This document shows positions 6,983 to 62,987 of a DNA stretch of 64,000 bases, piece after piece. The notes under the pieces were generated by a model, which worked only from the letters and a program-made list of their open reading frames with translations, had not been told where the DNA came from and ran no database searches. Each line of letters begins with the position of its first letter. Positions within the stretch are counted from its first letter, which is position 1. A program made the translations under genes and the position numbers. Source of the stretch: Bacillota bacterium (GTDB lineage Bacteria > Bacillota > Clostridia > Lachnospirales > CAG-274); NCBI GenBank assembly GCA_017543265.1, contig JAFYGI010000047.1, positions 62,001-126,000 of the forward strand, in the 5' to 3' direction.

Positions 6983-7567
6983 ATGTATTTAAAAATAAAA
7001 AGAATACTTGATGTTTTATTAAGTGTTATTGCGCTTTTGCTGTTTTGGTGGGTCTATATCGTTATTGCGGTGATGATAATCTGCGATGACAGGGGTCCCG
7101 TTATTTTCAGACAGCGCAGGATAGGCAAGGACAAAAAGGAATTTGAGATATACAAATTCAGGACAATGAAGATGGATACGCCCAAGGATGTACCGACGCA
7201 TTTGCTGGAAGACCCCAACAGCCATATAACAAAGGTTGGCGATTTTCTGCGCAAATTCAGCCTTGACGAGCTTCCGCAGCTCATCAATATAATAAGGGGC
7301 GATATGAGTATAGTCGGCCCGCGCCCCGCACTTTACAACCAGTACGACCTTATAGCCGAGCGCGATAAATACGGCGCAAATGCCGTGCGTCCCGGGCTTA
7401 CGGGTCATGCGCAGATAAACGGCAGGGACGAGCTTTCGGTGCAGGGCAAGGCCATGTACGACGGTATCTATGTCCAGAAAATGGGCTTTCTCATGGATCT
7501 TGGCATTATACTTAAAACAGGCGGCATCGTGCTTAAAAGAACGGGTTTTAAAGAAGGAAAACATTGA
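6983..7567 (+). CDS. undecaprenyl-phosphate sugar phosphotransferase (initiating, PglC/EpsL type)
   Basis: Transfers a sugar-1-phosphate from UDP-sugar to undecaprenyl phosphate, the first membrane step of a surface polysaccharide. This is the short monotopic form (194 residues): one N-terminal membrane segment (about residues 10-34) and a single bacterial sugar transferase domain. Family motifs are all visible: 'RQRRIGKD', 'KFRTM', 'DELPQLINIIRGDMS', 'VGPRPAL' and 'RPGLTGHAQINGRD'. GGGAG lies upstream of the ATG. The stop overlaps the next start as TGATG, so the epimerase is translationally coupled and probably makes its substrate or a later precursor. Confidence 0.92.
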   Translation: MYLKIKRILDVLLSVIALLLFWWVYIVIAVMIICDDRGPVIFRQRRIGKDKKEFEIYKFRTMKMDTPKDVPTHLLEDPNSHITKVGDFLRKFSLDELPQLINIIRGDMSIVGPRPALYNQYDLIAERDKYGANAVRPGLTGHAQINGRDELSVQGKAMYDGIYVQKMGFLMDLGIILKTGGIVLKRTGFKEGKH

Positions 7568-8527: not shown

Positions 8528-10525
8528 ATGAGTTCGTCAGAAAATATGACTGTAAATTGTATAAGAATATTAAGTGCGCAGGCGATACAAAAGGCAAAGT
8601 CGGGTCACCCCGGCGTTGCTATGGGTGCGGCACCCATGGCGCTGGAGCTTTGGGCAAGACATCTCAGACACAGCGCAAGCTGTCCCGATTGGATAGACCG
8701 CGACCGTTTTGTGCTTTCGGCAGGCCACGGCTCCATGCTTCTTTATTCGCTTTTGCATCTTTTCGGCTATCCTGTTTCCATGGATGATATAAAGGATTTC
8801 CGCCAGTTCGGCTCAAAGACACCCGGTCATCCCGAGTTCGGCCATACGGTCGGCGTGGAGGCAAGCACGGGTCCGCTCGGTCAGGGTCTTACAAATGCTG
8901 TGGGCATGGCTGTTACGGAGAGCTTTCTTGCGGCCAAATTCAACAGACCCGGTCACGAGATAATAGACCATTATTCGTATGCACTTTGCGGCGACGGCTG
9001 CCTTATGGAGGGTATTTCCTATGAGGCTGCGTCCTTTGCGGGGATTATGGGTCTCGGCAAGGTCATAATCCTGTACGATTCAAACAATATAACCATAGAG
9101 GGCAGCACGGAGCTTGCCTTTAAAGAGGATATCAAAAAGCGCTTTGAGTCCGTGAACTGGCAGTATCAGCTTGTTGAGGACGGTACCGACATGGCGGCTG
9201 TAGGCAGGGCGATAGAAGCGGCAAAGGCGGAAAAGAACAAGCCGTCCATTATCGAGGTCAAGACACAGATAGGCTATGGTGCTCCCAACAAGGCGGGCAC
9301 AAACAAGGCACACGGCGAGCCTCTCGGCGAGGAAGAACTGGAGCTTACAAAAAAGAACCTTGGCTGGACTGCTGAGCCTTTTACCGTACCCGACGAGGTG
9401 CTTGCATATATGTCGGATATACGCAAAAATACGGAGAAATATGTACAGGACTGGGAGGAAAAGTTTGCAAAGTACAGCGAGGCTTATCCCGAACTTGCAA
9501 AGCAGCTTAAAGACTGGTTCGACGGCAGCGGCGAGCAGAGCATCGCAAAGGAAATTTTAAACGACGATTCATTCTGGAATTATGAGGGCGACTGCGCAAC
9601 ACGCCAGTCCTCCGAAACCATACTTAACAAATTAAAGGATGTTATCCCCAACTTTATCGGCGGCTCGGCGGATCTTGCACCCTCCAACAAGTCGATAATG
9701 AAGGGCGTTGACTATTACACAAAGGAAAACCGCGGCGGCGGCAATATGCACTACGGCATAAGAGAGCTTGCCATGACGGCCATTGCAAACGGCATGGCTT
9801 TCCACGGCGGCGTAAAGCCCTATATCGCAAGCTTCTTTGTGTTCAGCGATTATATGAAGCCGGCGCTGCGTGTTTCGGCTATCTCGGGTCTGCCCGTTAT
9901 TGCCATACTTACGCATGACAGTATCGGTGTTGGCGAGGACGGCCCCACACACCAGCCCGTAGAGCAGCTTGCGGCATTCAGAAGTATGCCGGGCAGCTAT
10001 ACATTCCGTCCCTGTGATACCAACGAGGCGGCTGCGGCATGGTATACGGCCGTATTTAACGGCAAAAAGCCTACGCTTATGGCATATACACGTCAGACAA
10101 CAAAAAATATCGGCGCCGACGGCAGAAATGCCTTAAAGGGCGGATATATCATAAAGGACAGCGAAAAGGCCGTTCCCGATGTTATCATCATTGCAACGGG
10201 TTCGGAGGTCGGCCCCGCTTACGGCTCGTGGGAGCTGCTTAAAAACAAGGGTATCGACGCAAGAATAGTAAGTATGCCCTGTGTCGAGCTTTTCGAGGAG
10301 CAGAGCGAGGAATACAAGCAGTCCGTGCTGCCCGTTGAGGTGGATAAGCGTGTTGCCGTAGAGGCTTCAAGCGATAATTACTGGTACAGGTATATCGGCA
10401 TAAAGGGTAGGTTTATCGGCGTAGACCGTTTCGGTATCTCCGCACCCTTCCCGAAGCTGTTTGATTATTTTGGCTTTACACCCGAGCATATAGCGGAGGT
10501 TGCCGAAAGCGTAGCAAAGGGCTGA
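8528..10525 (+). CDS. tkt: transketolase
   Basis: A thiamine-diphosphate enzyme of the non-oxidative pentose phosphate pathway that moves two-carbon units between sugar phosphates. It is the full single-chain form (665 residues). The N-terminal domain has '[19 protein letters not shown]', the ThDP/Mg motif 'GDGCLMEG' and '[10 protein letters not shown]'; the middle pyrimidine-binding domain has '[19 protein letters not shown]' and '[19 protein letters not shown]'; a C-terminal domain follows. AGGAGG lies six bases before ATG 8528; an ATG at 8468 overlaps the promoter region and lacks a ribosome site. It is transcribed with the HD gene three bases downstream. rpiB at 32.3 kb belongs to the same pathway. 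Confidence 0.96.
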
Positions 10526-13867: not shown

Positions 13868-15343
13868 ATGGATTTTTCAACTAAAACTGCCCTTGAATTG
13901 GGACAAATGATTAAAAATAAGGAAGTCAGCAGCGTTGAGCTTACAAAGGACTTTCTTGCAAATATTAAAAAGACAGACGAAAAAATAAACGCATATATCA
14001 CCGTTTTGGAGGATGAGGCTCTTGCGCAGGCAGCTGCCGTGCAGGCCAAGATCGACAGCGGTGAGCTTACAGCCCCGCTTGCGGGCGTGCCTATGGCTAT
14101 AAAGGACAATATCTGTACAAAGGATATCCTTACCACCTGCGGCTCCAAAATGCTTTATAATTTCAAGCCCGTTTACAATGCTACCGTTACCGAAAGGCTT
14201 TTAAATAACGGTGCTGTTGTGCTGGGTAAATTAAATATGGACGAGTTTGCTATGGGCGGCTCCACCGAGACATCCTACTTTGGTGCTGCACACAACCCCT
14301 TTGATCCGGAAAGAGTTACGGGCGGTTCATCGGGCGGCTCGGCAGCAAGTATTGCTGCGGATGAGTGTGCTTATTCGCTCGGCTCCGATACGGGCGGTTC
14401 TATTCGTCAGCCCTGTTCGTTCTGCGGTGTAAGCGGTATCAAGCCTACCTACGGCGCTGTAAGCCGTTTTGGTTTGGTCGCATTCGCTTCCTCACTTGAC
14501 CAGATAGGCCCCGTGGGACGTGATATCCGCGACTGTGCAGAGGTATTAAGCGTTATTTCGGGTCACGACCCCAAGGATTCCACATCCGTTAAGGGCAAGA
14601 CATTTGATTTTTCACAGAGCTTTACAAAGGACTTAAAGGGCGTAAAAATAGGTCTGCCCACAAACTACTTTGGCAAGGGTCTTGACGAGGATGTTAAAAA
14701 GCCTGTTCTGGAGGCTGTTGAGACCTTGAAAAAGCTTGGCGCACAGGTAGAGGAATTTGAAATGTCGATAGTTGACTATGCTATCCCCACATATTACGTT
14801 CTTGCCTGCGCAGAGGCCAGCTCCAACCTTTCAAGATATGACGGCATCAAGTACGGCTACCGCAGAAAGGACTGCGAGGATCTTCTCGATGTTTACTACA
14901 CATCCAGAAGTGAGGGCTTCGGCATGGAGGTAAAGCGCCGTATAATGCTCGGTTCCTTCGTTCTGAGCAGCGGTTATTACGATGCTTACTACAACAAGAG
15001 CTTAAAGGTTCGCGGCCTTATCAAAAAGAGCTTTGACCAGGCCTTTAACGATTACGATATGATAATTTCGCCCGTTGCGCCTACGGTCGCATACAAGATA
15101 GGCGAAAATTCCTCCGACCCGTTAAAGATGTACCTTGGCGATATCTATACCGTATCGGTAAATCTTGCGGGTCTGCCGGGTGTTTCCGTACCCTGCGGCT
15201 TCGGCAAAGGCGATATGCCCGTAGGCTTCCAGCTTATCGGCCCCGCATTCAGCGAGGCAAAGCTTGTTAAGGCAGCTTACGCATTCCAGCAGTCAACGGA
15301 CTTTCACACAAAAAAGCCCGCTATAGTAAAGGAGGGCAACTGA
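13868..15343 (+). CDS. gatA: Asp/Glu-tRNA amidotransferase subunit A (amidase)
   Basis: Releases ammonia from glutamine (or asparagine) for transfer in GatB. The amidase-signature Ser-cisSer-Lys triad is present: Lys in 'PMAIKDNICT' (near residue 79), and the two serines in 'VTGGSSGGSAASIAADE' and 'SDTGGSIRQPCSFCG'. 'GIKPTYGAVSRFGLVAFASS' is the conserved core strand. 491 residues, normal. The start follows AAAGGGGGAGC and the gene is 12 bases after gatC. Ammonia is channelled to the partner encoded one base downstream. Confidence 0.97.
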   Translation: MDFSTKTALELGQMIKNKEVSSVELTKDFLANIKKTDEKINAYITVLEDEALAQAAAVQAKIDSGELTAPLAGVPMAIKDNICTKDILTTCGSKMLYNFKPVYNATVTERLLNNGAVVLGKLNMDEFAMGGSTETSYFGAAHNPFDPERVTGGSSGGSAASIAADECAYSLGSDTGGSIRQPCSFCGVSGIKPTYGAVSRFGLVAFASSLDQIGPVGRDIRDCAEVLSVISGHDPKDSTSVKGKTFDFSQSFTKDLKGVKIGLPTNYFGKGLDEDVKKPVLEAVETLKKLGAQVEEFEMSIVDYAIPTYYVLACAEASSNLSRYDGIKYGYRRKDCEDLLDVYYTSRSEGFGMEVKRRIMLGSFVLSSGYYDAYYNKSLKVRGLIKKSFDQAFNDYDMIISPVAPTVAYKIGENSSDPLKMYLGDIYTVSVNLAGLPGVSVPCGFGKGDMPVGFQLIGPAFSEAKLVKAAYAFQQSTDFHTKKPAIVKEGN

Positions 15344-15344
15344 T

Positions 15345-16784
15345 ATGAATTACCAAACAGTAGTAGGTCTGGAGGTCCATGTTGAGCTTTCGACCAAATC
15401 AAAAATTTTCTGCTCCTGTACAACGGAGTTCGGCGGCGAGCCCAATACACACGTTTGCCCCGTTTGCTCGGGTATGCCTGGTGTGCTCCCCGTTTTAAAC
15501 AAAAAGGTAGTGGACTTTGCTATCCGCGCAGGTCTTGCAACAAACTGCGAGATAACGCGCTACAATAAATTCGACCGTAAAAACTATTTCTATCCCGACC
15601 TTCCCAAGGCATATCAGGTCAGCCAGCTGTACCTGCCTATCTGCCGCAACGGTAAAGTCGAAATAGAGGTAGAGGGCAAGAAAAAATATATCGGCATCCA
15701 CGAGATACACATGGAGGAGGATGCAGGTAAGCTGGTACACGACCCCTGGGACGATTGTACACTTGTAGACTATAACCGCTGCGGCGTGCCGCTTTTGGAA
15801 ATAGTTTCCGAGCCCGACTTCAGAAGTGCGGACGAAGTTATAGCATATTTGACAAAACTCCGTGAAACTATGATGTATCTCGGCGTTTCAGACTGTAAAA
15901 TGCAAGAGGGCTCAATGCGTGCCGATGTCAATATTTCGGTTATGCCCGTAGGCTCCGCAAAGTTCGGTACCCGTACCGAGATGAAGAATATGAACAGTTT
16001 TAAGGCTATCTACCGCGCTATCAATTACGAGGCAAAGCGTCAGATAGAGGTGCTTGAAAACGGCGGCAGAGTGGTGCAGGAAACACGCCGCTGGGACGAT
16101 AACAAGGATGCATCCTTTGCAATGAGAAGCAAAGAAAATGCACAGGATTACCGTTATTTCCCCGAGCCCGACCTTCTGCCCATAGAGATCGGCGACGATT
16201 GGATAAAGGATACAAAGGACAATATGCCCGAGCTTCCCGAGGCAAAGCGTAAAAGATATATGTCCGAGTTTGGACTTTCCGAATATGATGCATCTGTTAT
16301 CACTGCCGAAAGACAGGTTGCTTATATCTTTGAGGACACCGCTGCACTTTGCGGCAAGCCCAAGGAGGCGGCAAACTACGTTATGGGCGAGCTGATGCGC
16401 CTGATGAGCGAAACGGGCACTCTGGCAGAGGAGCTTGAAATAGAGCCCAGGAAGATAGCCGATATTATCAAGCTTGTTTCCGACGGCAAGATAAACAGAA
16501 GTGTTGCCAAGGAAGTTTTCGAGGCTGTATTTAAGAAAAATGTTGACCCCGAAAAGTATATCGAGGAAAATAATCTTGCTATGGTGGACGATACCGCACT
16601 TGTTGAAGAAGTTGTTGCAAAGGTGATCGCAGACAATCCCAAATCGATAGATGACCTTAAGGCGGGCAAGGAAAAGGCAAAGGGCTTCCTTGTTGGTCAG
16701 ACAATGAAGGCATTAAAGGGTAAGGCTAACCCGCAGACAGTAAATAAGGTACTTAATGAAAAACTTTCGGAAGTGCTTAAATAA
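15345..16784 (+). CDS. gatB: Asp/Glu-tRNA amidotransferase subunit B
   Basis: Binds misacylated tRNA, phosphorylates the acyl group and amidates it. The N-terminal cradle domain starts 'YQTVVGLEVHVELSTKSKIFC' (broken here after 20 residues by family variability) and has the zinc ligands 'CSCTTEFGGEPNTHVCPVC'; the middle holds 'FDRKNYFYPDLPKAYQ' and 'MKNMNSFKAIYRAINYE'; the C-terminal YqeY-like tail ends 'VGQTMKALKGKANPQTVNK'. 479 residues, full length. The ribosome site AAGGAGGG lies inside the gatA end. Last gene of the operon, followed by a hairpin. Confidence 0.97.
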   Translation: MNYQTVVGLEVHVELSTKSKIFCSCTTEFGGEPNTHVCPVCSGMPGVLPVLNKKVVDFAIRAGLATNCEITRYNKFDRKNYFYPDLPKAYQVSQLYLPICRNGKVEIEVEGKKKYIGIHEIHMEEDAGKLVHDPWDDCTLVDYNRCGVPLLEIVSEPDFRSADEVIAYLTKLRETMMYLGVSDCKMQEGSMRADVNISVMPVGSAKFGTRTEMKNMNSFKAIYRAINYEAKRQIEVLENGGRVVQETRRWDDNKDASFAMRSKENAQDYRYFPEPDLLPIEIGDDWIKDTKDNMPELPEAKRKRYMSEFGLSEYDASVITAERQVAYIFEDTAALCGKPKEAANYVMGELMRLMSETGTLAEELEIEPRKIADIIKLVSDGKINRSVAKEVFEAVFKKNVDPEKYIEENNLAMVDDTALVEEVVAKVIADNPKSIDDLKAGKEKAKGFLVGQTMKALKGKANPQTVNKVLNEKLSEVLK

Positions 16785-48172: not shown

Positions 48173-49177
48173 CTATTCCACAAGTGCGCCGTTGCCGTCT
48201 TTAAAAATATATTTTTCGACAGTACCGTCGGCGTAGGTGATGGTAAAATCGCCCTCCTCGTAGTCGTCTACCCAGGTGCCTTCCCAGGTCTCACCGTCTT
48301 TTTTGACAAATTTCCCCTGTCCGTTTCTTAAATTATGCGACCACATACCGTAGTATACCGAGCCGCTGTCCGCAAAGGTAAATATGCCGTAGCCCTCGGC
48401 AATGCCGCCCGATACCGCACCTATATAGGTAGAGCCGTTGGGGAAAAGCTTTATGCAGTTGCCCTCGGCGGTGCCGTTTACCTTTTTGCCGATGACTGTC
48501 ACGCCGTTTTCTTCCCAGGCCTCGTTTCCGTCCAGCTTTATGCCGTAGCGTGCTGCGACCTGCTCATAGGAGGTCGTGTCGGTCTGCGCCTGCGTATCGG
48601 CCTTTTTTTGCCCCTTAAAGGCATAGAACAGGCCGACGGCCGTCAGAAGCAGGGATAGTGCCACCATAGAGACAATTACGCCCGTTTTGGACTTTTTTGG
48701 GGCATCCTTTTCGGATGCGGCCGTGTAAAGGTTGCCGCCGTGCCTTTCGGCAGGCTCGGCAGACGTCTGACCGCCGCCGTCTTTCAGGCAGTCCTTTATC
48801 TTTGACACAAATGCGAGGATATGCTTGTCCATATCCCCGTCAAAGGCCTCCGTCCAGTGCAGACGGCCGATATAGCTCATTGCATCGTCGCTTACGGTCT
48901 CGTCCGATATCTGAAACGGCAGTATGCTTATGTTTTCTCCGCCGTGAAGGCGCACACAGGCCGTGCTTATCTCGTCAAGCACCTGCTTTGAATAGCTTGC
49001 GGCCTGGTTTAATACAATAACAAATACCCTGCATTGCATAAGGGCGTTTTTTGCGCTTTCTCCGTCCTGTGCGGGCGTGGAAAAGCAGCTTATACCCTCG
49101 GATGTCAGTTTATCCGATATGCTTTGCGCGATACTCTGCGATCTTTCGCCAAAATGACTTATATAAACATCAGTCAT
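48173..49177 (-). CDS. TIR-domain, membrane, MORN-repeat protein
   Basis: 334 residues in three parts. Residues 1-130: a TIR-like domain ('DVYISHFGERSQSIAQSISD', 'SEGISCFSTPAQDGESAKNA', 'VFVIVLNQAASYSKQVLDEI'), with Glu69 in the position of the catalytic Glu of NADase TIRs. Residues 166-187: one membrane helix after a basic 'KKSKTG'. Residues 230-325: MORN-type repeats ('EGNCIKLFPNGSTYIGAVSG', 'GYGIFTFADSGSVYYGMWSH', 'GQGKFVKKDGETWEGTWVDD'). The TIR part would be cytosolic and the MORN part outside. AAGGAGATG precedes the ATG. It follows hflX by 27 bases on the same strand. Function unknown; signalling or defence is inference. Confidence 0.82.
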   Translation of the reverse strand: MTDVYISHFGERSQSIAQSISDKLTSEGISCFSTPAQDGESAKNALMQCRVFVIVLNQAASYSKQVLDEISTACVRLHGGENISILPFQISDETVSDDAMSYIGRLHWTEAFDGDMDKHILAFVSKIKDCLKDGGGQTSAEPAERHGGNLYTAASEKDAPKKSKTGVIVSMVALSLLLTAVGLFYAFKGQKKADTQAQTDTTSYEQVAARYGIKLDGNEAWEENGVTVIGKKVNGTAEGNCIKLFPNGSTYIGAVSGGIAEGYGIFTFADSGSVYYGMWSHNLRNGQGKFVKKDGETWEGTWVDDYEEGDFTITYADGTVEKYIFKDGNGALVE

Positions 49178-51810: not shown

Positions 51811-51839
51811 TTGCCATTATCGGCAGGATATGGTATTAT
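51811..51839 (+). promoter_or_regulatory. sigma-A promoter of mtaB
   Basis: TTGCCA at 51811-51816, a 17-base spacer and TATTAT at 51834-51839 with a TGG extension. Divergent from the wecB promoter. Confidence 0.7.
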
Positions 51840-51879
51840 AGATATACAGACGGATAAAGATAAAACGAGGTTGAAATAT

Positions 51880-53175
51880 ATGAAAAAGGTTGCATTTCTG
51901 ACACTTGGCTGCAAGGTCAATCTATACGATACCGAGGCCATGCAGGAGCTTTTTGCCGCAAGGGGCTACGACATAGTGGACTTTGAGAATATGGCGGATA
52001 TATATATTATAAACACCTGTACGGTGACAAATTTCGGCGATAAAAAATCCAGACAGATGATAAGGCGGGCAAAACGTCAAAACCCCGATGCCATTGTTGC
52101 CGCAACGGGCTGTTATGCACAGGTGGCACCCGATACCGTGTCAAAGATAGAGGGCATAAATATCGTGGTGGGTACAAAGCACCGCGCGCGCATAGTGGAC
52201 ATAATAGAGGACTATACCGACGAAACAAAGGTGCTTAACGCCGTTTCGGACATAAGGCACGAGACGGAGTTTGAGCCGCTTAAAATAAGCAAGCTTAAGG
52301 ACAGGACACGCGCCTATGTCAAGATACAGGAGGGCTGTAACCGCTATTGCAGCTATTGTATAATCCCATACGCACGCGGCCCCGTAAGAAGCCGCCGCCC
52401 CGAAGAGGTGGTCGAGGAGGTAAAGCGGCTTGCCCAAAACGGCTTTAAGGAGGTAGTTTTAACGGGCATACACGTTGCCAGCTACGGCCTTGACCTTAAG
52501 TGTACAAATCTTACAGATATAGTAAAGCAGGTAAACGAAACAGAGGGTATAGAGCGCATACGCTTCAGCTCTATGGAGCCCACGGCGGTAACGGAGGAAT
52601 TTGTTGCCGAGATGAAGAAAATGCCCAAGATATGCGACCACTTCCCGCTTTCGCTTCAAAGCGGCTGCGACAAAACGCTGAAAGCCATGAACCGCCGTTA
52701 TACCGCGGATGAATACGCACTTGCCGTGGACAGACTGCGCGGTGCCTTTCCCGATGTGGCCATAACCACCGATATCATTGTCGGCTTTCCCGGCGAGACC
52801 GAGGAGGACTTTTTGGAAAGCATAGCCTTTGCAAGGCGCGTGGGTCTTTCAAAAATACACGTTTTCCCGTATTCGCCCAAGACGGGCACACCCGCGGCCA
52901 AAATGAAGGAGCAGGTGCCGCCCGATGTCAAAAACGACAGAGCCGCAAGGCTTATTGCCGTAAGTGACGAGCTGAACAAAAAATTCATTGATACACTAAA
53001 GGGAAGAACTATGCACGTTTTGTTTGAGATACGCAATAAAGACGGCTATTTTGAGGGTCATACCACAAACTATATAAAGGTGCTTGTAAAGACCGAAGAG
53101 GATCTTAAAAACAAGATATTAAACGTAAAAATAGGAGAATACTGCGGTGATGAAACTGTTTACGGAGAGATTTAA
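51880..53175 (+). CDS. mtaB: tRNA t6A37 methylthiotransferase MtaB
   Basis: A radical-SAM enzyme that turns t6A37 into ms2t6A in tRNAs for Lys (UUU). 431 residues: N-terminal MTTase domain with cluster ligands 'LTLGCKVNLYDTEAM', 'INTCTVTNFGDKKSR' and 'AATGCYAQVAPD'; radical-SAM motif 'EGCNRYCSYCIIPYARGPVR'; C-terminal TRAM domain. The 'LGCKVNLYD' rather than 'GCQMN' start marks MtaB, not MiaB. ATG 51880 has CGAGG upstream. Overlaps the nuclease gene by 29 bases. Acts on the product of the Sua5 pathway. Confidence 0.94.
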   Translation: MKKVAFLTLGCKVNLYDTEAMQELFAARGYDIVDFENMADIYIINTCTVTNFGDKKSRQMIRRAKRQNPDAIVAATGCYAQVAPDTVSKIEGINIVVGTKHRARIVDIIEDYTDETKVLNAVSDIRHETEFEPLKISKLKDRTRAYVKIQEGCNRYCSYCIIPYARGPVRSRRPEEVVEEVKRLAQNGFKEVVLTGIHVASYGLDLKCTNLTDIVKQVNETEGIERIRFSSMEPTAVTEEFVAEMKKMPKICDHFPLSLQSGCDKTLKAMNRRYTADEYALAVDRLRGAFPDVAITTDIIVGFPGETEEDFLESIAFARRVGLSKIHVFPYSPKTGTPAAKMKEQVPPDVKNDRAARLIAVSDELNKKFIDTLKGRTMHVLFEIRNKDGYFEGHTTNYIKVLVKTEEDLKNKILNVKIGEYCGDETVYGEI

Positions 53176-54517
53176 AATTTCTTTTGCGCTTTTGCTTGCG
53201 GCTGCGTTTTGCATTATTGCGCAGGTCGGCGTATATGCGGGGGATATTGTCATAAACGGCGAAAGAATGAGTGCTGACCCCGCGCCCTTTATCCAAAACG
53301 GCAGAACGCTTGTGCCGCTAAGGTTTATAAGCGAAAACCTCGGTGCGGAGGTAGAATATGACGACAAAGACCGTCTTGTGACGGTATCTGACGGGGATGT
53401 TCTGATAAAGCTGGGATTGGACAGCAATACCGCCCTTGTGAACGATAACGGCGTAACGCTTGATGCACCCGCGCAGATATGCGATGGCAGAACTATGGTG
53501 CCGCTTCGCTTTATTGCGGAGGCCTTTGACTGCACGGTAAATTACGAGAGTGAGTCGAAGCTTGTTTTTATATCGGACAAAAGCTTTGACAAGGAGTATA
53601 TAACGCTTGACGATATCCCCGAATATTCGGGCAGTCCGTATATTGAGCTTTATTATAATATGCCGCTTTTTGAGAATATTTCGGACAAGCCCTATGAAAG
53701 CTACGGACAGCTTGACACACTGGGCAGATGCACCGCCGCCGAGGCCTGTCTTTCACGGGAGCTGATGCCCACCGAAAAGCGCGGCAGCATAGGCAGCGTA
53801 CAGCCAAGCGGCTGGAGAATATCCAAATACGATTTTATCGACGGACAGTATCTTTTTAACCGCTGTCACCTTATCGCATATATGCTGACGGCGGAAAACG
53901 ATAATCCTTTAAACCTTATAACCGGCACAAGGTATATGAATACCGAGGGTATGCTGCCCTTTGAAACAGAGGTATGCGATCATATCAAGAAAACAAACGG
54001 CCGCGTTATGTACAGGGTTACGCCCGTGTATTCGGGGGACGAGCCCATAGCAAGGGGCGTGCTGATGGAGGCTTTTTCCGTCGGGGACAACGGAAAGGAC
54101 ATCTGCTTTGATGTTTTTGTATACAATGTTCAGCCTGGTGTAAGAATAAATTACGAAAACGGCGAGAATTATCCCGATGACTTCAATATTTTCACAACCG
54201 TTGAGGAAACGACCGAGCAGACCACCGAATTCAAGACGGAAGAAACCACGGGAATAAACACTCACGAAACAAACGAGCAGACAACGAATATCGAGGAGCT
54301 TATAGAGTGCTTTTCGGTAACGCCCGAAAGCCCTGCGGAAAGCTTTGACTATATATTAAATATCCACACAATGAAATTTCATCTGCCGGATTGTAAGCAT
54401 ATAAACGATATTTCGGACAAAAACAAGCGCGGCTATAACGGCGATGCCGGGCTGCTTGAAGAAATAGGCTTCAAGCCCTGCGGCGGCTGCAAACCAACAA
54501 AAGAGGGAAGAAAATGA
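53147..54517 (+). CDS. exported DNA/RNA non-specific endonuclease with copper-amine-oxidase-N repeats
   Basis: 456 residues. A signal peptide (about 1-31, ending 'VYAG-D') is followed by two copper-amine-oxidase N-terminal-like units (about 32-150: 'NGRTLVPLRFISENLGAEVE' and 'DGRTMVPLRFIAEAFDCTVN'), which act as wall-attached modules. The nuclease domain (about 180-345) has 'YGQLDTLGRCTAAEACLSRE' and 'YLFNRCHLIAYMLTAENDNP', with the NRCH variant of the DRGH catalytic His site, and 'NLITGTRYMN'. A Thr/Glu linker leads to a C-terminal Cys/His motif ('HLPDCKHI...PCGGCKP', about 415-450), perhaps zinc-binding. Start GTG 53147 has AGGAG nine bases upstream; overlaps mtaB by 29 bases and ligA by four. 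Confidence 0.85.
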   Translation: MMKLFTERFKISFALLLAAAFCIIAQVGVYAGDIVINGERMSADPAPFIQNGRTLVPLRFISENLGAEVEYDDKDRLVTVSDGDVLIKLGLDSNTALVNDNGVTLDAPAQICDGRTMVPLRFIAEAFDCTVNYESESKLVFISDKSFDKEYITLDDIPEYSGSPYIELYYNMPLFENISDKPYESYGQLDTLGRCTAAEACLSRELMPTEKRGSIGSVQPSGWRISKYDFIDGQYLFNRCHLIAYMLTAENDNPLNLITGTRYMNTEGMLPFETEVCDHIKKTNGRVMYRVTPVYSGDEPIARGVLMEAFSVGDNGKDICFDVFVYNVQPGVRINYENGENYPDDFNIFTTVEETTEQTTEFKTEETTGINTHETNEQTTNIEELIECFSVTPESPAESFDYILNIHTMKFHLPDCKHINDISDKNKRGYNGDAGLLEEIGFKPCGGCKPTKEGRK

Positions 54518-57957: not shown

Positions 57958-58206
57958 ATGGCACTGCAAAGACTTAGCGATGACGAGCTTATGATGGTAT
58001 CGGGGGGAACAGGCAATGCGTCAAACTGTACCGTCAGGGCGGTGGGAAATCCTAACATGATGCCGTGCAGGCAGGAAAAATGCTTACGCTGCGGAAGCAC
58101 TGCGCTGACAGACGGGTTGTTCAGCACGGACAACGGCAGAACGGTATATCAGGGGCAGGAGTGCGTTTGCGGCAATATAATGATATACGGTGACAACATA
58201 ATGTAA
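57958..58206 (+). CDS. double-glycine-leader peptide 1 (Cys-rich core)
   Basis: 82 residues. The N-terminus 'MALQRLSDDELMMVSGG' is a classic double-glycine leader recognised by peptidase-containing ABC exporters or RiPP machinery. After the GG the 65-residue core has six cysteines in the pattern C, C-x4-C-x2-CG, C-x-CG, more like a small zinc ribbon or disulfide knot than a linear bacteriocin. AAAGGAG lies seven bases before the ATG. No maturation or export gene is present in the window. Confidence 0.7.
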   Translation: MALQRLSDDELMMVSGGTGNASNCTVRAVGNPNMMPCRQEKCLRCGSTALTDGLFSTDNGRTVYQGQECVCGNIMIYGDNIM

Positions 58207-58225
58207 AAAGAAAGGAGTATGCGGT

Positions 58226-58354
58226 ATGAAGGACAAAAATGAAAATGATATGTCCTTGGAAGAGATCAATGAAGGCGACTTTGAAAAGATAGCCGGCGGT
58301 TTGGACTACGAGGTGGATCAGGAGGTCGTTATCGGCGGCAATAACGGCAAATAG
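58226..58354 (+). CDS. double-glycine-leader peptide 2
   Basis: A 42-residue reading frame with a strong ribosome site (AAAGGAG) 19 bases after the first peptide gene. 'MSLEEINEGDFEKIAGG' is a double-glycine-type leader preceded by a charged 'MKDKNEND' start; the remaining 17-residue core 'LDYEVDQEVVIGGNNGK' is acidic and lacks cysteine. The shared leader type and spacing suggest a peptide family in one transcript. It ends at a TAG. Confidence 0.65.
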   Translation: MKDKNENDMSLEEINEGDFEKIAGGLDYEVDQEVVIGGNNGK

Positions 58355-58495
58355 GCCGAATATAATATAAAAAAAAGGGATGAGTTATATGGTCAAAAAA
58401 GGAATCGATTTATGGCGCTCCTGCTTGCGCTGACCGTTGCGGCACCGAATGTCGTATGGGCGGACACACACCCGTATGTCAAGCAAAAACTAAAA

Positions 58496-59750
58496 AATAT
58501 TTTTATTTATAGGTTTAGCCCTCAAAGTCCTGTATCTTCCATTCGACTTTAATACTCTTATCGGGGTATACATACACTTTCTCAACAAGTGCAATATCAA
58601 AAATCTGCTTATGCAAGGCTTCTTCCGTTATACTTAACTGATAGCAGGGTTCGTTGCCGTAAAGCCTTGTATACTTGCATTTAAAGCGGGAATTCTTGGC
58701 TTTTATATACTCCATAGAGTGGTTACAGCACCCACAAAAAACTTTTGAACGAAGCGGATATATTCGAGCGTTTTCTCCTTTTCGCTTATATACAGGCTTT
58801 GTTTCGCTTGCTTTTCGGAATATTTCTTCCGAAACTATTGCAGGATGATGATTCGGGATCTTTACCCATTTATCCTCGGTTTTCAATATCCGCCGTTTGC
58901 TTCCTACATCCGTAACCTGTCTTTTGCCCATAACATACATACCCATATATATTTCATTTGAAAGTATATTTGCTATCGTTTCAGATTTCCAATACTTGCA
59001 TTTTGAAATATCACAGCTGCTTAAGCCTTTTTGCGCTTTATATTGTATGGGCGTGGGTATGCCTTTGTCGGAAAGGTGCTTTGCTATTTGCGTTTTGGGC
59101 ATTCCCTCTGTATACAGCTTAAATATTGTCCTGATATTGTCGGCTACTTCATCATCTATTATGAGCTTTTTATTTTCATCAAATTTATATCCGTAAGGAT
59201 ATTGTCCGGTGCAGTATTCACCATTTCGTATTCTTATTTGCCTTGCAGTCTTGACCTTGATTGATATATCGCGGCTGTAATACTCATTTATAAGATATTT
59301 GAACGCTATATTCATACCGCCAGTATCGCCCTTGTGTTCATCGCTGTCAAAACAATCACTCACGGAAATGAACCGAACATTAAACAGCGGGAAAACCTGC
59401 TGGGTAAAGTAACCGACCTCAATGCTGTTTCTGCCGAACCTTGAAAAGTCCTTAACAAGAATACAGTTTATCTTATTTAGCTGTATATCCGACAAAAGCC
59501 GTTGTACTGCGGGTCTTTCAAAGTTTGTGCCTGTATAGCCGTTGTCCGTATATTCAACGATCTTCACATTTTGTACAGGCATTTTTTCTGCATACTCTGT
59601 AAGCAAGAGCCTTTGAGATTCTATGCTGATACTCTCGCTTCTTGCATCATCAACGGATAATCGAAGGTATATTGCCACTGTATAATCAGTCATTGTTCCA
59701 CACCTCCGTATTAAATTCATTGTCGAATGTATATTTTATTTCTATACGGT
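58496..59750. mobile_element. minimal serine-recombinase element inserted in the SLH frame
   Basis: About 1.24 kb containing only the recombinase gene. Both ends show related AT-rich sequence: ATATTTTTATTT-ATAGG at 58498-58513 and ATATTTTATTTCTATACGG at 59731-59749, imperfect direct repeats that could be attL and attR. Removing 58511-59747 rejoins the interrupted SLH reading frame. Boundaries are inferred. Confidence 0.6.
58515..59693 (-). CDS. large-serine-type recombinase (compact)
   Basis: 392 residues from ATG 59693, with GGAGG nine bases upstream. Resolvase catalytic domain (about 1-150) with Ser in 'DDARSESISIESQRLLLTEY' and 'IVEYTDNGYTGTNFERPAVQ', 'LVKDFSRFGRNSIEVGYFTQ'; recombinase domain (about 165-280, 'YPYGYKFDENKKLIIDDEVA', 'GMPKTQIAKHLSDKGIPTP'); and a zinc ribbon ('FCGCCNHSMEY...CKYTRLYGNEPCYQ'). 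It is shorter than phage integrases (about 450-550 residues) and has no long coiled coil. Such enzymes perform site-specific integration or excision of mobile DNA. Its AT-rich composition differs from its neighbours. Confidence 0.92.
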   Translation of the reverse strand: MTDYTVAIYLRLSVDDARSESISIESQRLLLTEYAEKMPVQNVKIVEYTDNGYTGTNFERPAVQRLLSDIQLNKINCILVKDFSRFGRNSIEVGYFTQQVFPLFNVRFISVSDCFDSDEHKGDTGGMNIAFKYLINEYYSRDISIKVKTARQIRIRNGEYCTGQYPYGYKFDENKKLIIDDEVADNIRTIFKLYTEGMPKTQIAKHLSDKGIPTPIQYKAQKGLSSCDISKCKYWKSETIANILSNEIYMGMYVMGKRQVTDVGSKRRILKTEDKWVKIPNHHPAIVSEEIFRKASETKPVYKRKGENARIYPLRSKVFCGCCNHSMEYIKAKNSRFKCKYTRLYGNEPCYQLSITEEALHKQIFDIALVEKVYVYPDKSIKVEWKIQDFEG

Positions 59751-59842
59751 TATCCCGATAATACTTTCAGACCTAAGAACACCATTACAAGAGCCGAGGC
59801 AGCCGCAATACTGTACGGCGTAAAGGAAAGATAATTAAAAAT

Positions 59843-59866
59843 GCGGGCAGTTTAAATGCTGCCCGC
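59843..59866. terminator. hairpin between SLH fragment and peptide 3
   Basis: GCGGGCAG at 59843-59850 pairs with CTGCCCGC at 59859-59866. T-rich sequence follows on the minus strand, not on the plus strand, so as a terminator it would act leftwards; on the plus strand it may be an mRNA hairpin. Confidence 0.5.
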
Positions 59867-59899
59867 CAAAGATACTTTATATTGAGAAAGGAGAAAAAA

Positions 59900-60076
59900 A
59901 TGATGTTAGACGAAAAAAAATTAAATGAAGAACAGCTTAAAAACGTAGCCGGAGGGATGGGTTCCATCTATGATCTCGGTGAGGAATGGATAGTACACGG
60001 TGATAACACAAAACGGGAAGGCATCATGTGTACGGACTATGAGAGAGACGGCGAATGGGTCATGGGCAAAAGTTAA
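59900..60076 (+). CDS. double-glycine-leader peptide 3
   Basis: 58 residues. 'MMLDEKKLNEEQLKNVAGG' is a double-glycine leader like those of peptides 1 and 2; the core of about 39 residues ('MGSIYDLGEEWIVHGDNTKR', then 'GIMCTDYERDGEWVMGKS') has one Cys and two Trp and is acidic. AAAGGAG precedes the ATG. It lies just right of the recombinase element, so before insertion the three peptides and the mini-SLH gene would have been contiguous. A terminator follows. Confidence 0.65.
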   Translation: MMLDEKKLNEEQLKNVAGGMGSIYDLGEEWIVHGDNTKREGIMCTDYERDGEWVMGKS

Positions 60077-60096: not shown

Positions 60097-60127
60097 GGGG
60101 ATACGGGTACGCTCGTATCCCCGTTTT
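60097..60127 (+). terminator. Rho-independent terminator after peptide 3
   Basis: GGGGATACG at 60097-60105 pairs with CGTATCCCC at 60114-60122, followed by GTTTTT. Confidence 0.88.
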
Positions 60128-60248: not shown

Positions 60249-62987
60249 ATGAAACTTTTAAAAAGGGCTGTAAGTGCGTTTTTATCAACTGCTGTGGCCG
60301 TTTCCTGCTTTGCGGGCGTGAATGTTGCCTATGCTGCGGAGCCGACGCTGGCAGGCGGCTGGAACGAAACGCTGTATGCACAGTGGACGGACAGCAATCC
60401 GTCGGCGGCTACCGTTACATATAAGCACGGCGGTGTGGAAAAAACGCTTACAGGCGAGGATAAGGCATTTTTGCAAAGAACTGTGGACGGCAGTGCGCGT
60501 GTGGATATACCCGGCCTTGCACCGGGCAGGTACGACCTGACCATTAAGGCATCAAACGGCACGGTCTACGAAAAAACGGGTATAAACGTACCCAAGCAGG
60601 ACCGTTCGGGCTATGCGCATTTTAACTACAGCGAGGGTGTCGGCGCGTACAACAGCGACGGTACACTCAAGGCAAATGCTGTTGTACTCTATGTTACAGA
60701 GGAAAACAAAAACACGGTAACGCTGTCCTACGGCGGCAAAAGCGTAACGGGTATAGGCAATATCCTTAACTCCCGCGGTGCTACCAAGGACGCAACGGTG
60801 CAAAATACAAACGGCGGCATACTTACAACACTTGCCGAAAACAATATACCCCTTGTTGTGCGTATCGTGGGCAAGGTAGAGGCAGGCGATACAAACACAA
60901 AGGGCGGCACAAATTTCACGGGCGAAAATGTTCCCGTGCCGAGTGAAAGCATTAACGGTCTTACGGCCTACAACTCCACCGATTACGGCGGATCCGCAAA
61001 GGATAACGGCATGATGGCCAGAATGATAGATGCCACCAACATTACGATAGAGGGTATAGGCCATGATGCCTGCATAGACGGCTGGGGCTTCCATCTGGTA
61101 GCTTCCTCAGCAGGCGCATCCAAAAAGTTTGCAAGAAATTTTGAGGTAAGGAATATAACCTTTGCCAACTATCCCGAGGATGCTATCGGTATGGAGGGAC
61201 AGCAGGAGGGCTCCACGGTCACGGCACCCGTAAGCCGCTGCTGGATACATAACAACACCTTTAAGTGCGGCTACTGTAAAAGCCCCGCGGAAAGCGATAA
61301 AAAAGAGGGTGACGGCTCCTGCGACTTCAAGCGCGGCGAGTATTATACGCTGGCCTACAACAAGTTTGAAAACTGTCACAAGACAAACCTTATCGGCGCA
61401 AGCGATTCAAACCTGCAGTACAATATAACCATGCACCACAACTACTGGTCGGACTGCAAGGCAAGAGGCCCGCTTGCCAGAAAGGCAAATATACATATGT
61501 ACAACAACTATGTGTACCGCCAGACGGACTATGCGGAAAACGCAAGGGCAAATGCCTTTATTTTCTCGGAATACTGCTATTTCGAGGGCTGCAAGGGTGC
61601 GCTGGCACCTGCGGGCGGCCGCATAGCATCGTATAACGACACATTTTTAAGCTGTCTTAACAGCAGCGAGGATGCCTGCAAGGTATCAAGCAGAAGCGAG
61701 GCCGTGTATGATGCAAACCTGTACGGCAATTTTGTTGTGGACTCCTCACAGGGTTATATCAAGGACGGCAATTACAGCCTGACATCAAATTCGGCACAGG
61801 CAAAGGCCGAGTGTATCGCATATTCGGGTGCTATGAAAAAGCAGATAATAACTTCCGATACCGTGGATACCTCTGTTATCCCCGCAGAGCTTTACAACAA
61901 GGCGGCGGCATCACCCGTCGAGATACCTTATTCCATAGATTATACAAGCAGCACCTGCTCGCTGGGCAAGCTTGACAGCCCCTATACCAAATCGGTGCAT
62001 GAAAACCTTGTATATAACCTTGCCAAAAAGTATTCACCCGGCAATGCCGCGGTGGTAGGACAGGCAGGCATCGTGTTCTTCCTCAACCAGTCGGCGGATG
62101 TAACGCTTGACGGCGTATCGGGCACGGCAACACCCGTTATCTACACCGAAAACGGCGATGCGGTCATAAAGACCTCGGGCACGGCGACCCTTGCACCCGG
62201 CGTTTACATGGTACAGTCCTCCATATTCGATGTGGGCACAAGCACCTATAAGGAGGCAAAGGTCAACTCGCTTACATTTAAGGCAAAGGGCGAGGGTGAG
62301 ACGGTCACCGCAACACAAAAGGAGACTACTACCGAGGGTACGACAGTTTCCGCAGAAACGACAAGCAAGTCCCAAGGCGGTGAGGACGAGACCGAAACAG
62401 AGCCCGAGACGGAGCCCGTAACAAGCGACCCGAGCGGTTATGCGGCAATGGGCAAATATGTATTCGGAAGCTCGCCGTCGGAAACGGGCGATTATAAGGT
62501 ATCGTCAAAATCCGTTAATGAGGGCAATATAGACTTTATTTTCAGAAATATCAGCACATCCAGCTGTTCGCTCAGGGCGGACGACGGTACGGGTATCGCG
62601 TTTGCGCTTGCAAAGCCCACCAAGGCAGAGATAAAAATGGCCGACGGCAAGGCCGCTGTCCTGATAGAAAATAATACGGGCATGATGTTTGAATTGCCGG
62701 GCAATGCGGTAAGCACATACCAGCTTGCGGCAGGCAGCTATTCGATAGAGGGCATCGACCCCGGAAGCAACTCCAAGATATCGGTAATGACGCTTACCGA
62801 AATAAGCTCGCCGCAAAAGGGCGATGTGGACGTAAACGGTGTTGTTGACAGGGATGATGCGGCGCTGCTGCTTAAATACCTCGGCGGCACGGTACGATTT
62901 ACCACACTTCAGATCGAGCTGGCAAAGGTAAATACCGACTCGGCGGCGGATATGCTTGATGTTATAGCAATATTGAACAAAAATTAA
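60249..62987 (+). CDS. secreted pectate lyase (PL1-like) with C-terminal dockerin
   Basis: 912 residues. Signal peptide 1-30 ('VAYAA-E'). An N-terminal beta-sandwich (about 31-115) precedes the PL1-type right-handed beta helix (about 125-560): 'GHDACIDGWGFHLVASSAGA', 'FEVRNITFANYPEDAIGMEG', 'MHHNYWSDCKARGPLARKAN' and 'HMYNNYVYRQTDYAENARAN' carry the calcium-site Asp and catalytic Arg region. A Thr/Glu-rich linker (about 690-730) leads to a second beta domain and a two-repeat type I dockerin ('GDVDVNGVVDRDDAALLLKY' and 'VNTDSAADMLDVIAILNKN'). It cleaves polygalacturonate by elimination; the dockerin implies attachment to a cohesin scaffold. AGGAGG precedes the ATG. Confidence 0.9.
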   Translation: MKLLKRAVSAFLSTAVAVSCFAGVNVAYAAEPTLAGGWNETLYAQWTDSNPSAATVTYKHGGVEKTLTGEDKAFLQRTVDGSARVDIPGLAPGRYDLTIKASNGTVYEKTGINVPKQDRSGYAHFNYSEGVGAYNSDGTLKANAVVLYVTEENKNTVTLSYGGKSVTGIGNILNSRGATKDATVQNTNGGILTTLAENNIPLVVRIVGKVEAGDTNTKGGTNFTGENVPVPSESINGLTAYNSTDYGGSAKDNGMMARMIDATNITIEGIGHDACIDGWGFHLVASSAGASKKFARNFEVRNITFANYPEDAIGMEGQQEGSTVTAPVSRCWIHNNTFKCGYCKSPAESDKKEGDGSCDFKRGEYYTLAYNKFENCHKTNLIGASDSNLQYNITMHHNYWSDCKARGPLARKANIHMYNNYVYRQTDYAENARANAFIFSEYCYFEGCKGALAPAGGRIASYNDTFLSCLNSSEDACKVSSRSEAVYDANLYGNFVVDSSQGYIKDGNYSLTSNSAQAKAECIAYSGAMKKQIITSDTVDTSVIPAELYNKAAASPVEIPYSIDYTSSTCSLGKLDSPYTKSVHENLVYNLAKKYSPGNAAVVGQAGIVFFLNQSADVTLDGVSGTATPVIYTENGDAVIKTSGTATLAPGVYMVQSSIFDVGTSTYKEAKVNSLTFKAKGEGETVTATQKETTTEGTTVSAETTSKSQGGEDETETEPETEPVTSDPSGYAAMGKYVFGSSPSETGDYKVSSKSVNEGNIDFIFRNISTSSCSLRADDGTGIAFALAKPTKAEIKMADGKAAVLIENNTGMMFELPGNAVSTYQLAAGSYSIEGIDPGSNSKISVMTLTEISSPQKGDVDVNGVVDRDDAALLLKYLGGTVRFTTLQIELAKVNTDSAADMLDVIAILNKN

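What the first reader, a model, noticed from the sequence alone, without database searches (positions are those of the whole stretch)
57958..60076. Cluster of three double-glycine-leader peptides without processing genes
Three short genes (82, 42 and 58 residues) share leaders of the form LSDDELxxVSGG / FEKIAGG / LKNVAGG but have unrelated cores: Cys-rich, acidic and Trp-containing. No peptidase-type ABC exporter, radical-SAM or lanthionine enzyme is in the window. They may be orphan substrates of a distant exporter, forming a set of secreted signals, bacteriocins or surface factors. The second is too small for routine gene calling and may be missed in annotations.
Basis: partly seen in the sequence, partly recalled or inferred. 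Interest (0 to 1): 0.65.

Follow-up and report, generated by a model that had tools for sequence, protein, structure and literature searches.

The report
Exported zinc-ribbon peptides, remote exporter
Three tiny genes in an uncultured Bacillota genome encode precursors of secreted mini-proteins whose cut-and-export machine lies on another contig of the same genome, one being an outlying member of a family of exported zinc-ribbon peptides I could not find described, the other two the survivors of a surface-protein locus wrecked by a mobile element.

Summary
The three double-glycine (GG) precursors are real: P1 57958-58206, P2 58226-58354, P3 59900-60076. Each has a good ribosome site, relatives in other species, and dN/dS below 1. 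The genome has three C39-peptidase ABC exporters, none in the window. P1's core, CxxCG...GQxC(x1-4)C, is shared by two GG peptides beside one of them, an NHLP-type double ABC exporter on contig 47. That family (24 members, 8 of 97 relatives) always co-occurs with this exporter type; in one relative P1's likely orthologue lies between the exporter ATPase gene and a STAS/SpoIIE/anti-sigma regulatory set. Three Cys are invariant, and the fourth is Cys or His, so the core is probably a zinc ribbon. P2 and P3 belong to another type: in a relative they flank an intact 2811-aa Calx-beta/SLH surface-protein gene, of which the window keeps about 30 codons at each end around a truncated recombinase element. 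Two other genomes carry giant, GG peptide and exporter consecutively.

The parts
57958..58206 (+). P1: 82-aa GG-leader precursor with zinc-ribbon-like core
   Evidence: paralogues beside exporter; orthologues; dN/dS
57958..58008 (+). P1 leader MALQRLSDDELMMVSGG, predicted C39 cut after GG
   Evidence: L(-12), E(-8), L(-7), V(-4), GG fit the published recognition pattern (PMC12184118); cleavage not shown
58081..58173 (+). P1 CxxCG...GQECxCG four-Cys core (residues 42-72)
   Evidence: first three Cys 24/24, fourth Cys 21/24, His in other 3; model
58226..58354 (+). P2: 42-aa GG-leader precursor, acidic core LDYEVDQEVVIGGNNGK
   Evidence: homologue with same core in L058 18024-18158; dN 0.23 / dS 1.13
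58394..58480 (+). Remnant of the start (signal peptide, residues 3-31) of a giant Calx-beta/SLH surface-protein gene, frameshifted
58469..59754 (.). Remnant of a mobile element; left end CACCCGTATGTCAAGC shared with copies in G001 and G004 inserted at other sites; right side is a deletion junction
58515..59720 (-). Serine recombinase, 401 aa, with an in-frame internal deletion of 111 aa relative to the copy in G001:C12
59742..59834 (+). Remnant of the end of the giant gene (last ~30 codons, SLH domain)
   Evidence: Pfam SLH 2.9e-8; 87% identity to residues 2782-2811
59900..60076 (+). P3: 58-aa GG-leader precursor
   Evidence: 57% identical homologue directly after the intact giant gene in G001
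60097..60122 (+). Intrinsic terminator after P3

Best explanation
P1, P2 and P3 are precursors of small secreted proteins, recognised by their GG leaders, cut after the second Gly and exported by the NHLP-type C39 double ABC exporter encoded on contig 47 of the same genome. P1 is an outlying member of a family of exported zinc-ribbon mini-proteins made with that exporter and, where the exporter locus is complete, with a SpoIIE-type phosphatase, an RsbW-like anti-sigma kinase and a STAS protein that probably switch production on and off. P2 and P3 are companions of a giant Calx-beta/S-layer-homology protein whose gene stood between them; here a mobile element inserted into that gene and a later deletion removed almost all of it, leaving both peptide genes open. 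The most likely role of the exported products is at the cell surface or between cells (envelope or adhesion factors, as proposed for MAM of Faecalibacterium). Shown: genes, leaders, conservation, linkage of homologues to exporter and giant gene, and the deletion. Inferred: cleavage, export, which exporter, zinc binding, regulation, role.
For: Three C39 exporters in the genome. Exporter at L007 12200-16573 exceeds NCBIfam cut-offs for TIGR03796 (895.7 vs 853.3) and TIGR03797 (718.5 vs 709.4) and keeps the expected Q, C, H and D motifs. Two GG peptides 3-5 kb from it share P1's core: z 11 and 0 of 5000 shuffles (P1-PB), z 4.7 and 6 of 5000 (P1-PA). Family members lie directly beside exporter genes in G001, G014, G021 and G028; in G014 it is the P1 orthologue, between ABC2 and STAS. 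8 of 8 genomes with the family have this exporter type at 824.9 bits or more, against 6 of 89 without; Fisher 2e-8, not corrected for kinship. Seven of those eight have no other complete C39 exporter. Giant gene followed by a GG peptide in 4 of 4 complete loci. Giant, GG peptide, HlyD, C39 ABC, ABC2 in that order on one strand in G022 and G007. Purifying selection. Deletion junctions.
Against: The window genes are not near an exporter and no expression or product data exist. Two further NHLP-like exporters in the genome could be cognate. P2 and P3 are linked to the exporter only through more distant relatives; P3's ratio (0.28/0.46) is a weak sign of selection, and with the giant gene gone P2 and P3 may be decaying. 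In G001 the P1 copy of this locus is a pseudogene remnant, though an intact orthologue lies elsewhere. Structure searches were weak: no Foldseek match at E<=0.001, best zinc-ribbon Z 3.1.
Confidence: 0.72

Rival explanations
1. P1-P3 are unmodified class II-type bacteriocins that kill competitors after C39 export.
For: Leaders look like class II leaders: weak TIGR03949 and PF10439 hits. The exporter family is named for bacteriocins. Small, duplicated, variable cores are typical.
Against: All hits are under the curated cut-offs. No immunity-like partner was recognised. The four ligands are conserved across 24 members, unlike hypervariable toxin cores, and P2 is short and acidic.
Confidence: 0.2
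2. The cores are extracellular signal peptides sensed by the producing population, with the SpoIIE/RsbW/STAS set as the response circuit.
For: SpoIIE protein with a 5TM sensor-like domain, anti-sigma and STAS genes beside the peptides or exporter in several genomes, two families included.
Against: No dedicated peptide receptor kinase was recognised; a folded 65-aa zinc ribbon is large for a pheromone; the regulators could simply control expression.
Confidence: 0.2
3. P2 and P3 (and perhaps P1) are neutral leftovers: the locus is dead after loss of the giant gene.
For: The giant gene is reduced to its ends; the P1 equivalent in G001 is a remnant.
Against: All three frames, ribosome sites and leaders are intact; dN/dS below 1, although most of that divergence may predate the deletion; P1 belongs to a family with intact members beside the exporter.
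Confidence: 0.2
4. P1 is an intracellular zinc-ribbon protein and its GG is coincidental.
For: Zinc ribbons are normally intracellular; weak profile matches are to RNA polymerase subunits.
Against: The GG is invariant in all 24 members and the leader positions before it are conserved, while the stretch just after GG varies in length; members sit beside a C39 exporter; the leader is disordered in the model.
Confidence: 0.08

Closest known systems
NHLP/Nif11 precursor families and their TIGR03794/03796/03797 exporter (Haft 2010, PMC2887384)
   Same: Same exporter family above curated cut-offs; GG cut site; several precursors per genome
   Different: Leaders here are short (about 17-25 aa) and match neither precursor model; no modifying enzyme seen beside the exporter; core is a conserved zinc-ribbon-like pattern, not hypervariable; HlyD subunit reduced to 74 aa
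MAM of Faecalibacterium and its PCAT exporter (PMC12184118)
   Same: GG-leader small protein with a C39 ABC exporter in a gut Bacillota; proposed envelope component
   Different: MAM core is modelled as helical, with zinc not mentioned; no SpoIIE set in that paper's text
Lah cluster / LahT C39 protease (PMC6363468)
   Same: One exporter protease cuts many diverse GG leaders, including short ones
   Different: Lah peptides have Nif11-type leaders and belong to a RiPP cluster
Class II bacteriocins (PF10439, TIGR01847, TIGR03949)
   Same: Leader pattern
   Different: Scores below cut-off; no immunity gene recognised
Zinc ribbons of RPB9/RPA12/TFIIS and NrdR
   Same: CPxCG...C-x(1-4)-C pattern and beta ribbon in the model
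   Different: Here preceded by an export leader; structural similarity scores are low

Membership tests
GG-leader substrate of a C39 ABC exporter | Leader with hydrophobic -12, -7, -4, polar/acidic -8 and GG at -2/-1 | tested here: met
   P1 L-E-L-V-GG (-12,-8,-7,-4), P2 I-D-F-I-GG, P3 L-Q-L-V-GG; pattern rare in the genome
GG-leader substrate of a C39 ABC exporter | C39-peptidase ABC exporter in the genome | tested here: met
   three
GG-leader substrate of a C39 ABC exporter | Clustered with its exporter (usual, not obligatory) | tested here: not met
   no C39 exporter in the window; met for P1 paralogues (L007) and P1 orthologue (L052)
GG-leader substrate of a C39 ABC exporter | Cleavage after GG and secretion | not testable with these tools
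   needs an assay
NHLP bacteriocin export system (exporter at L007) | TIGR03796 and TIGR03797 above cut-off | tested here: met
   895.7/853.3 and 718.5/709.4 bits
NHLP bacteriocin export system (exporter at L007) | Full TIGR03794 HlyD subunit | tested here: not met
   36.6 vs 156.2 bits, first 45 of 421 positions only
NHLP or Nif11 precursor (TIGR03793/TIGR03798) | Match to the precursor leader model | tested here: not met
   no such match for P1-P3 at E<=1 nor among the 25 most frequent families of the 24 members
Class II bacteriocin | PF10439 / TIGR01847 / TIGR03949 above cut-off | tested here: not met
   P1 13.7 vs 27.1 and 16.7 vs 21.5; P3 13.6 vs 15.7
Post-translationally modified RiPP | Modifying enzyme next to precursor or exporter | tested here: inconclusive
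   none recognised in L007 or the other exporter loci by gene calls and selected family scans; P195 is unknown; rest of genome not searched
Zinc ribbon | Four ligands CxxC...C-x(1-4)-[CH] | tested here: met
   24/24 for the first three, 21 Cys + 3 His for the fourth
Zinc ribbon | Fold | tested here: inconclusive
   beta ribbon, core pLDDT about 81-88; VIA Z up to 3.1 to zinc ribbons, no Foldseek match at E<=0.001
Zinc ribbon | Binds zinc | not testable with these tools
   needs purified protein and metal analysis

The most novel reading that the evidence does not exclude
A distinct secretion system: a partner-switching set (SpoIIE phosphatase, RsbW-like kinase, STAS) governs an NHLP-type exporter that puts folded zinc-ribbon mini-proteins outside the cell, often several per genome, in at least two families of one order (with short GG leaders in one and longer Nif11-like leaders in the other).
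Probability: 0.35. Interest if true: 0.75.

Novelty: new variant of a known kind. Interest (0 to 1): 0.55.

Why it matters
Zinc ribbons are textbook intracellular modules; a family of them carrying export leaders and travelling with a peptidase-exporter and a partner-switching regulator would be a new kind of cargo for a known machine, in anaerobes of gut type (a same-genus relative is a roe-deer duodenum MAG) where a precedent, MAM, affects the host. It also shows how orphan GG peptides can be assigned to a remote exporter by following paralogues, and explains one orphan set as the wreck of a larger surface-protein locus. P2-size genes are probably missed by routine annotation.

Tried and rejected
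A leader pattern with wrong spacing found only one chance hit; corrected. No GG peptides with the same leader were found beside the other two C39 exporters, L001 and L002. Foldseek gave no significant match. The profile hits to C2H2 zinc-finger proteins were rejected as compositional, because tandem fingers match by CxxC spacing. A radical SAM in the window was considered and rejected as a RiPP enzyme. Literature searches for zinc ribbon with Nif11 and leader peptide, leader peptide with C39 peptidase and zinc ribbon, and partner switching with bacteriocin and GG found nothing; zinc ribbon with double-glycine gave one unrelated paper. Most subscription journals and all bioRxiv preprints were outside the library. 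A scan of three long-leader peptides of G386 and G258 gave no TIGR03798 hit at 1e-5, so 'Nif11-like' is only a resemblance. The organism's name could not be established.

Full report
OBSERVATION. The three genes exist as described. P1 (57958-58206, 82 aa) and P2 (58226-58354, 42 aa) are 19 bases apart on the same strand; P3 (59900-60076, 58 aa) follows 1.5 kb later and ends in a terminator. Each has an AAGGAG-type ribosome site. The leaders fit the GG pattern with hydrophobic residues at -12, -7 and -4 and a polar or acidic one at -8 (pattern as quoted in PMC12184118). A degenerate DNA pattern for that leader occurs six times in the 2.49-Mb genome and once when reversed; three of the six are P1-P3, one is a GG peptide beside an exporter, one a GG peptide on contig 10, and one (contig 42) has no short ORF around it and is probably chance.

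EXPORTER. The genome has three C39-peptidase ABC exporters, none in the window. The one on contig 47 (L007 12200-14371, with partner ABC2 14387-16573) passes the curated cut-offs of the NHLP export families TIGR03796 and TIGR03797, and its C39 domain keeps the Gln, Cys, His and Asp motifs expected from knowledge of the family. Its HlyD subunit is only 74 aa. Upstream on the same strand lie a GG peptide (7254-7523), a secreted protein with a copper-amine-oxidase N-terminal domain, a second GG peptide (8791-9045), a SpoIIE-type phosphatase with a 5TM domain and an RsbW-like kinase.

P1 BELONGS TO THE EXPORTER'S PEPTIDE FAMILY. The cores of P1 and of the second contig-47 peptide align at z 11 (0 of 5000 shuffles as good); with the first, z 4.7 (6 of 5000). 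A search of 97 related genomes found the family in 8: five of six genomes of the genus and all three genomes of genus g10 among those searched, G014, G021 and G028. P1 has closest relatives in G004 (59% identity), G005 (49%), G001 (45%) and G014 (41%), all ending YGxNI[LM]; dN is 0.35-0.52 with dS above 2, so selection on the protein is clear, though dS is near saturation. In G014 this relative sits between the exporter's second ATPase gene and STAS, P195, SpoIIE and kinase genes; in G001, G021 and G028 other family members sit beside exporter genes. All 8 genomes with the family have the TIGR03796-type exporter at 824.9 bits or more; 6 of 89 others do. Fisher's test gives 2e-8, but relatedness is not corrected, and only two genera carry the signal. 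The one genus member without the family (G003) has no C39 exporter. The seven other genomes with the family have no second complete C39 exporter, which points to this type as the cognate one. In G001, P1's relative is followed directly by a sodium:solute symporter 89% identical to the one 3 kb after P3 in the window, so part of the setting is old.

ZINC RIBBON. In 24 members the first three Cys are invariant; the fourth is Cys in 21, and the other three have His, as C-x3-H. Cys-to-His exchange keeps a metal site but would break a disulfide. Pfam and NCBIfam hits are weak, but many are zinc ribbons. The AlphaFold2 model has a disordered leader and a beta-ribbon core (block means pLDDT 81-88 for residues 31-80). 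Structure comparison is weak. Zinc binding is an inference.

THE SAME ARRANGEMENT ELSEWHERE. In family f6 of the order, G386 has an NHLP-type exporter (813.9 bits, under the cut-off), an RsbW-like kinase, a STAS gene, two SpoIIE-type genes and a GG peptide with a CPxC...CxxCGHxW core but a long Nif11-like leader. G386 and its genus-mate G258 have at least twelve such genes each. In G035 the set STAS, SpoIIE, kinase, four GG peptides of about 50 aa (one within a longer frame), short HlyD, C39 ABC, ABC2 is contiguous, with other cores. So exporter plus regulators recur with changing cargo.

P2, P3 AND THE GIANT GENE. In G001 the locus is intact: CuAO-domain protein, a decayed P1 (its last 60 bases or so still align with the window), P2 homologue, a 2811-aa protein with Calx-beta and three SLH domains, then P3 homologue. 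P2's core YEVDQEVVIG is identical there. Each of four complete orthologues or close paralogues of the giant (G001, G014, G004 twice) is followed within about 300 bases by a GG peptide. In G022 and G007 a giant Calx-beta-like protein, a GG peptide, one further gene, HlyD, C39 ABC and ABC2 follow each other on one strand, linking this second peptide type to the same exporter family. In the window only codons of the giant's first ~31 and last ~30 residues remain. Between them lies a recombinase of 401 aa that lacks 111 internal residues of its 97% identical relative in G001, where it is the last of three recombinases in tandem. The left end of the element (CACCCGTATGTCAAGC) is the same in copies at other sites; at the right the window jumps from element to giant inside a short shared stretch, CGG[TC]TATC. 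The simplest history is insertion into the giant gene near codon 30, then a deletion with microhomology that removed most of the element and about 8.3 kb of the giant.

INTERPRETATION. Shown: precursors, leaders, conservation, remote exporter, linkage of homologues, wreckage of the giant gene. Inferred: C39 cleavage and export (LahT shows that such a protease can cut many unrelated GG leaders, PMC6363468), regulation by the SpoIIE set, zinc, and function. A surface or intercellular role is favoured because of the SLH giant and the MAM precedent (PMC12184118); bacteriocin and signal remain open.

NOVELTY. The machine is a known kind (Haft 2010, PMC2887384). The cargo type, exported zinc-ribbon mini-proteins with a partner-switching set, was not found in the searched literature, which excludes most subscription journals and all preprints. 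I rate it a new variant of a known kind.

Noticed in passing
L005 3037-13302 and 13382-19198 (G000:C5); L006 1-11439 (G000:C47): A second NHLP-like exporter (below cut-off) followed by a 1162-aa NRPS-like protein and a giant Calx-beta protein cut by the contig end; a third such exporter lies beside a giant at the start of contig 47.
   Followed up: partly
L105, L107, L110 (G386, G258): Arrays of GG peptides with long Nif11-like leaders and zinc-ribbon-like cores, at least twelve genes per genome.
   Followed up: partly
L119 3824-7026 (G085:C26): About nine tandem GG peptides with another Cys-rich core ending in a W-H...C motif, beside an NHLP-type exporter.
   Followed up: no
L095 3862-4032 (G000:C10): A sixth GG peptide of this genome, ending GYEQDREWSFDLCR, like P3, near two genes with STAS-like starts.
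   Followed up: partly
window 53147-54517: Protein with a copper-amine-oxidase N-terminal domain fused to a DNA/RNA non-specific endonuclease, probably secreted.
   Followed up: partly
window 48173-49177: TIR domain joined to MORN repeats.
   Followed up: partly
window 51811-53175: Radical SAM plus UPF0004 protein, likely a tRNA methylthiotransferase, so the statement that no radical SAM is in the window is not literally true.
   Followed up: yes
window 59843-59866: GC-rich hairpin between the giant gene's end and P3; its sequence is largely kept in G001.
   Followed up: no
window 60249-62987: 912-aa pectate lyase with a weak dockerin match just after P3.
   Followed up: no
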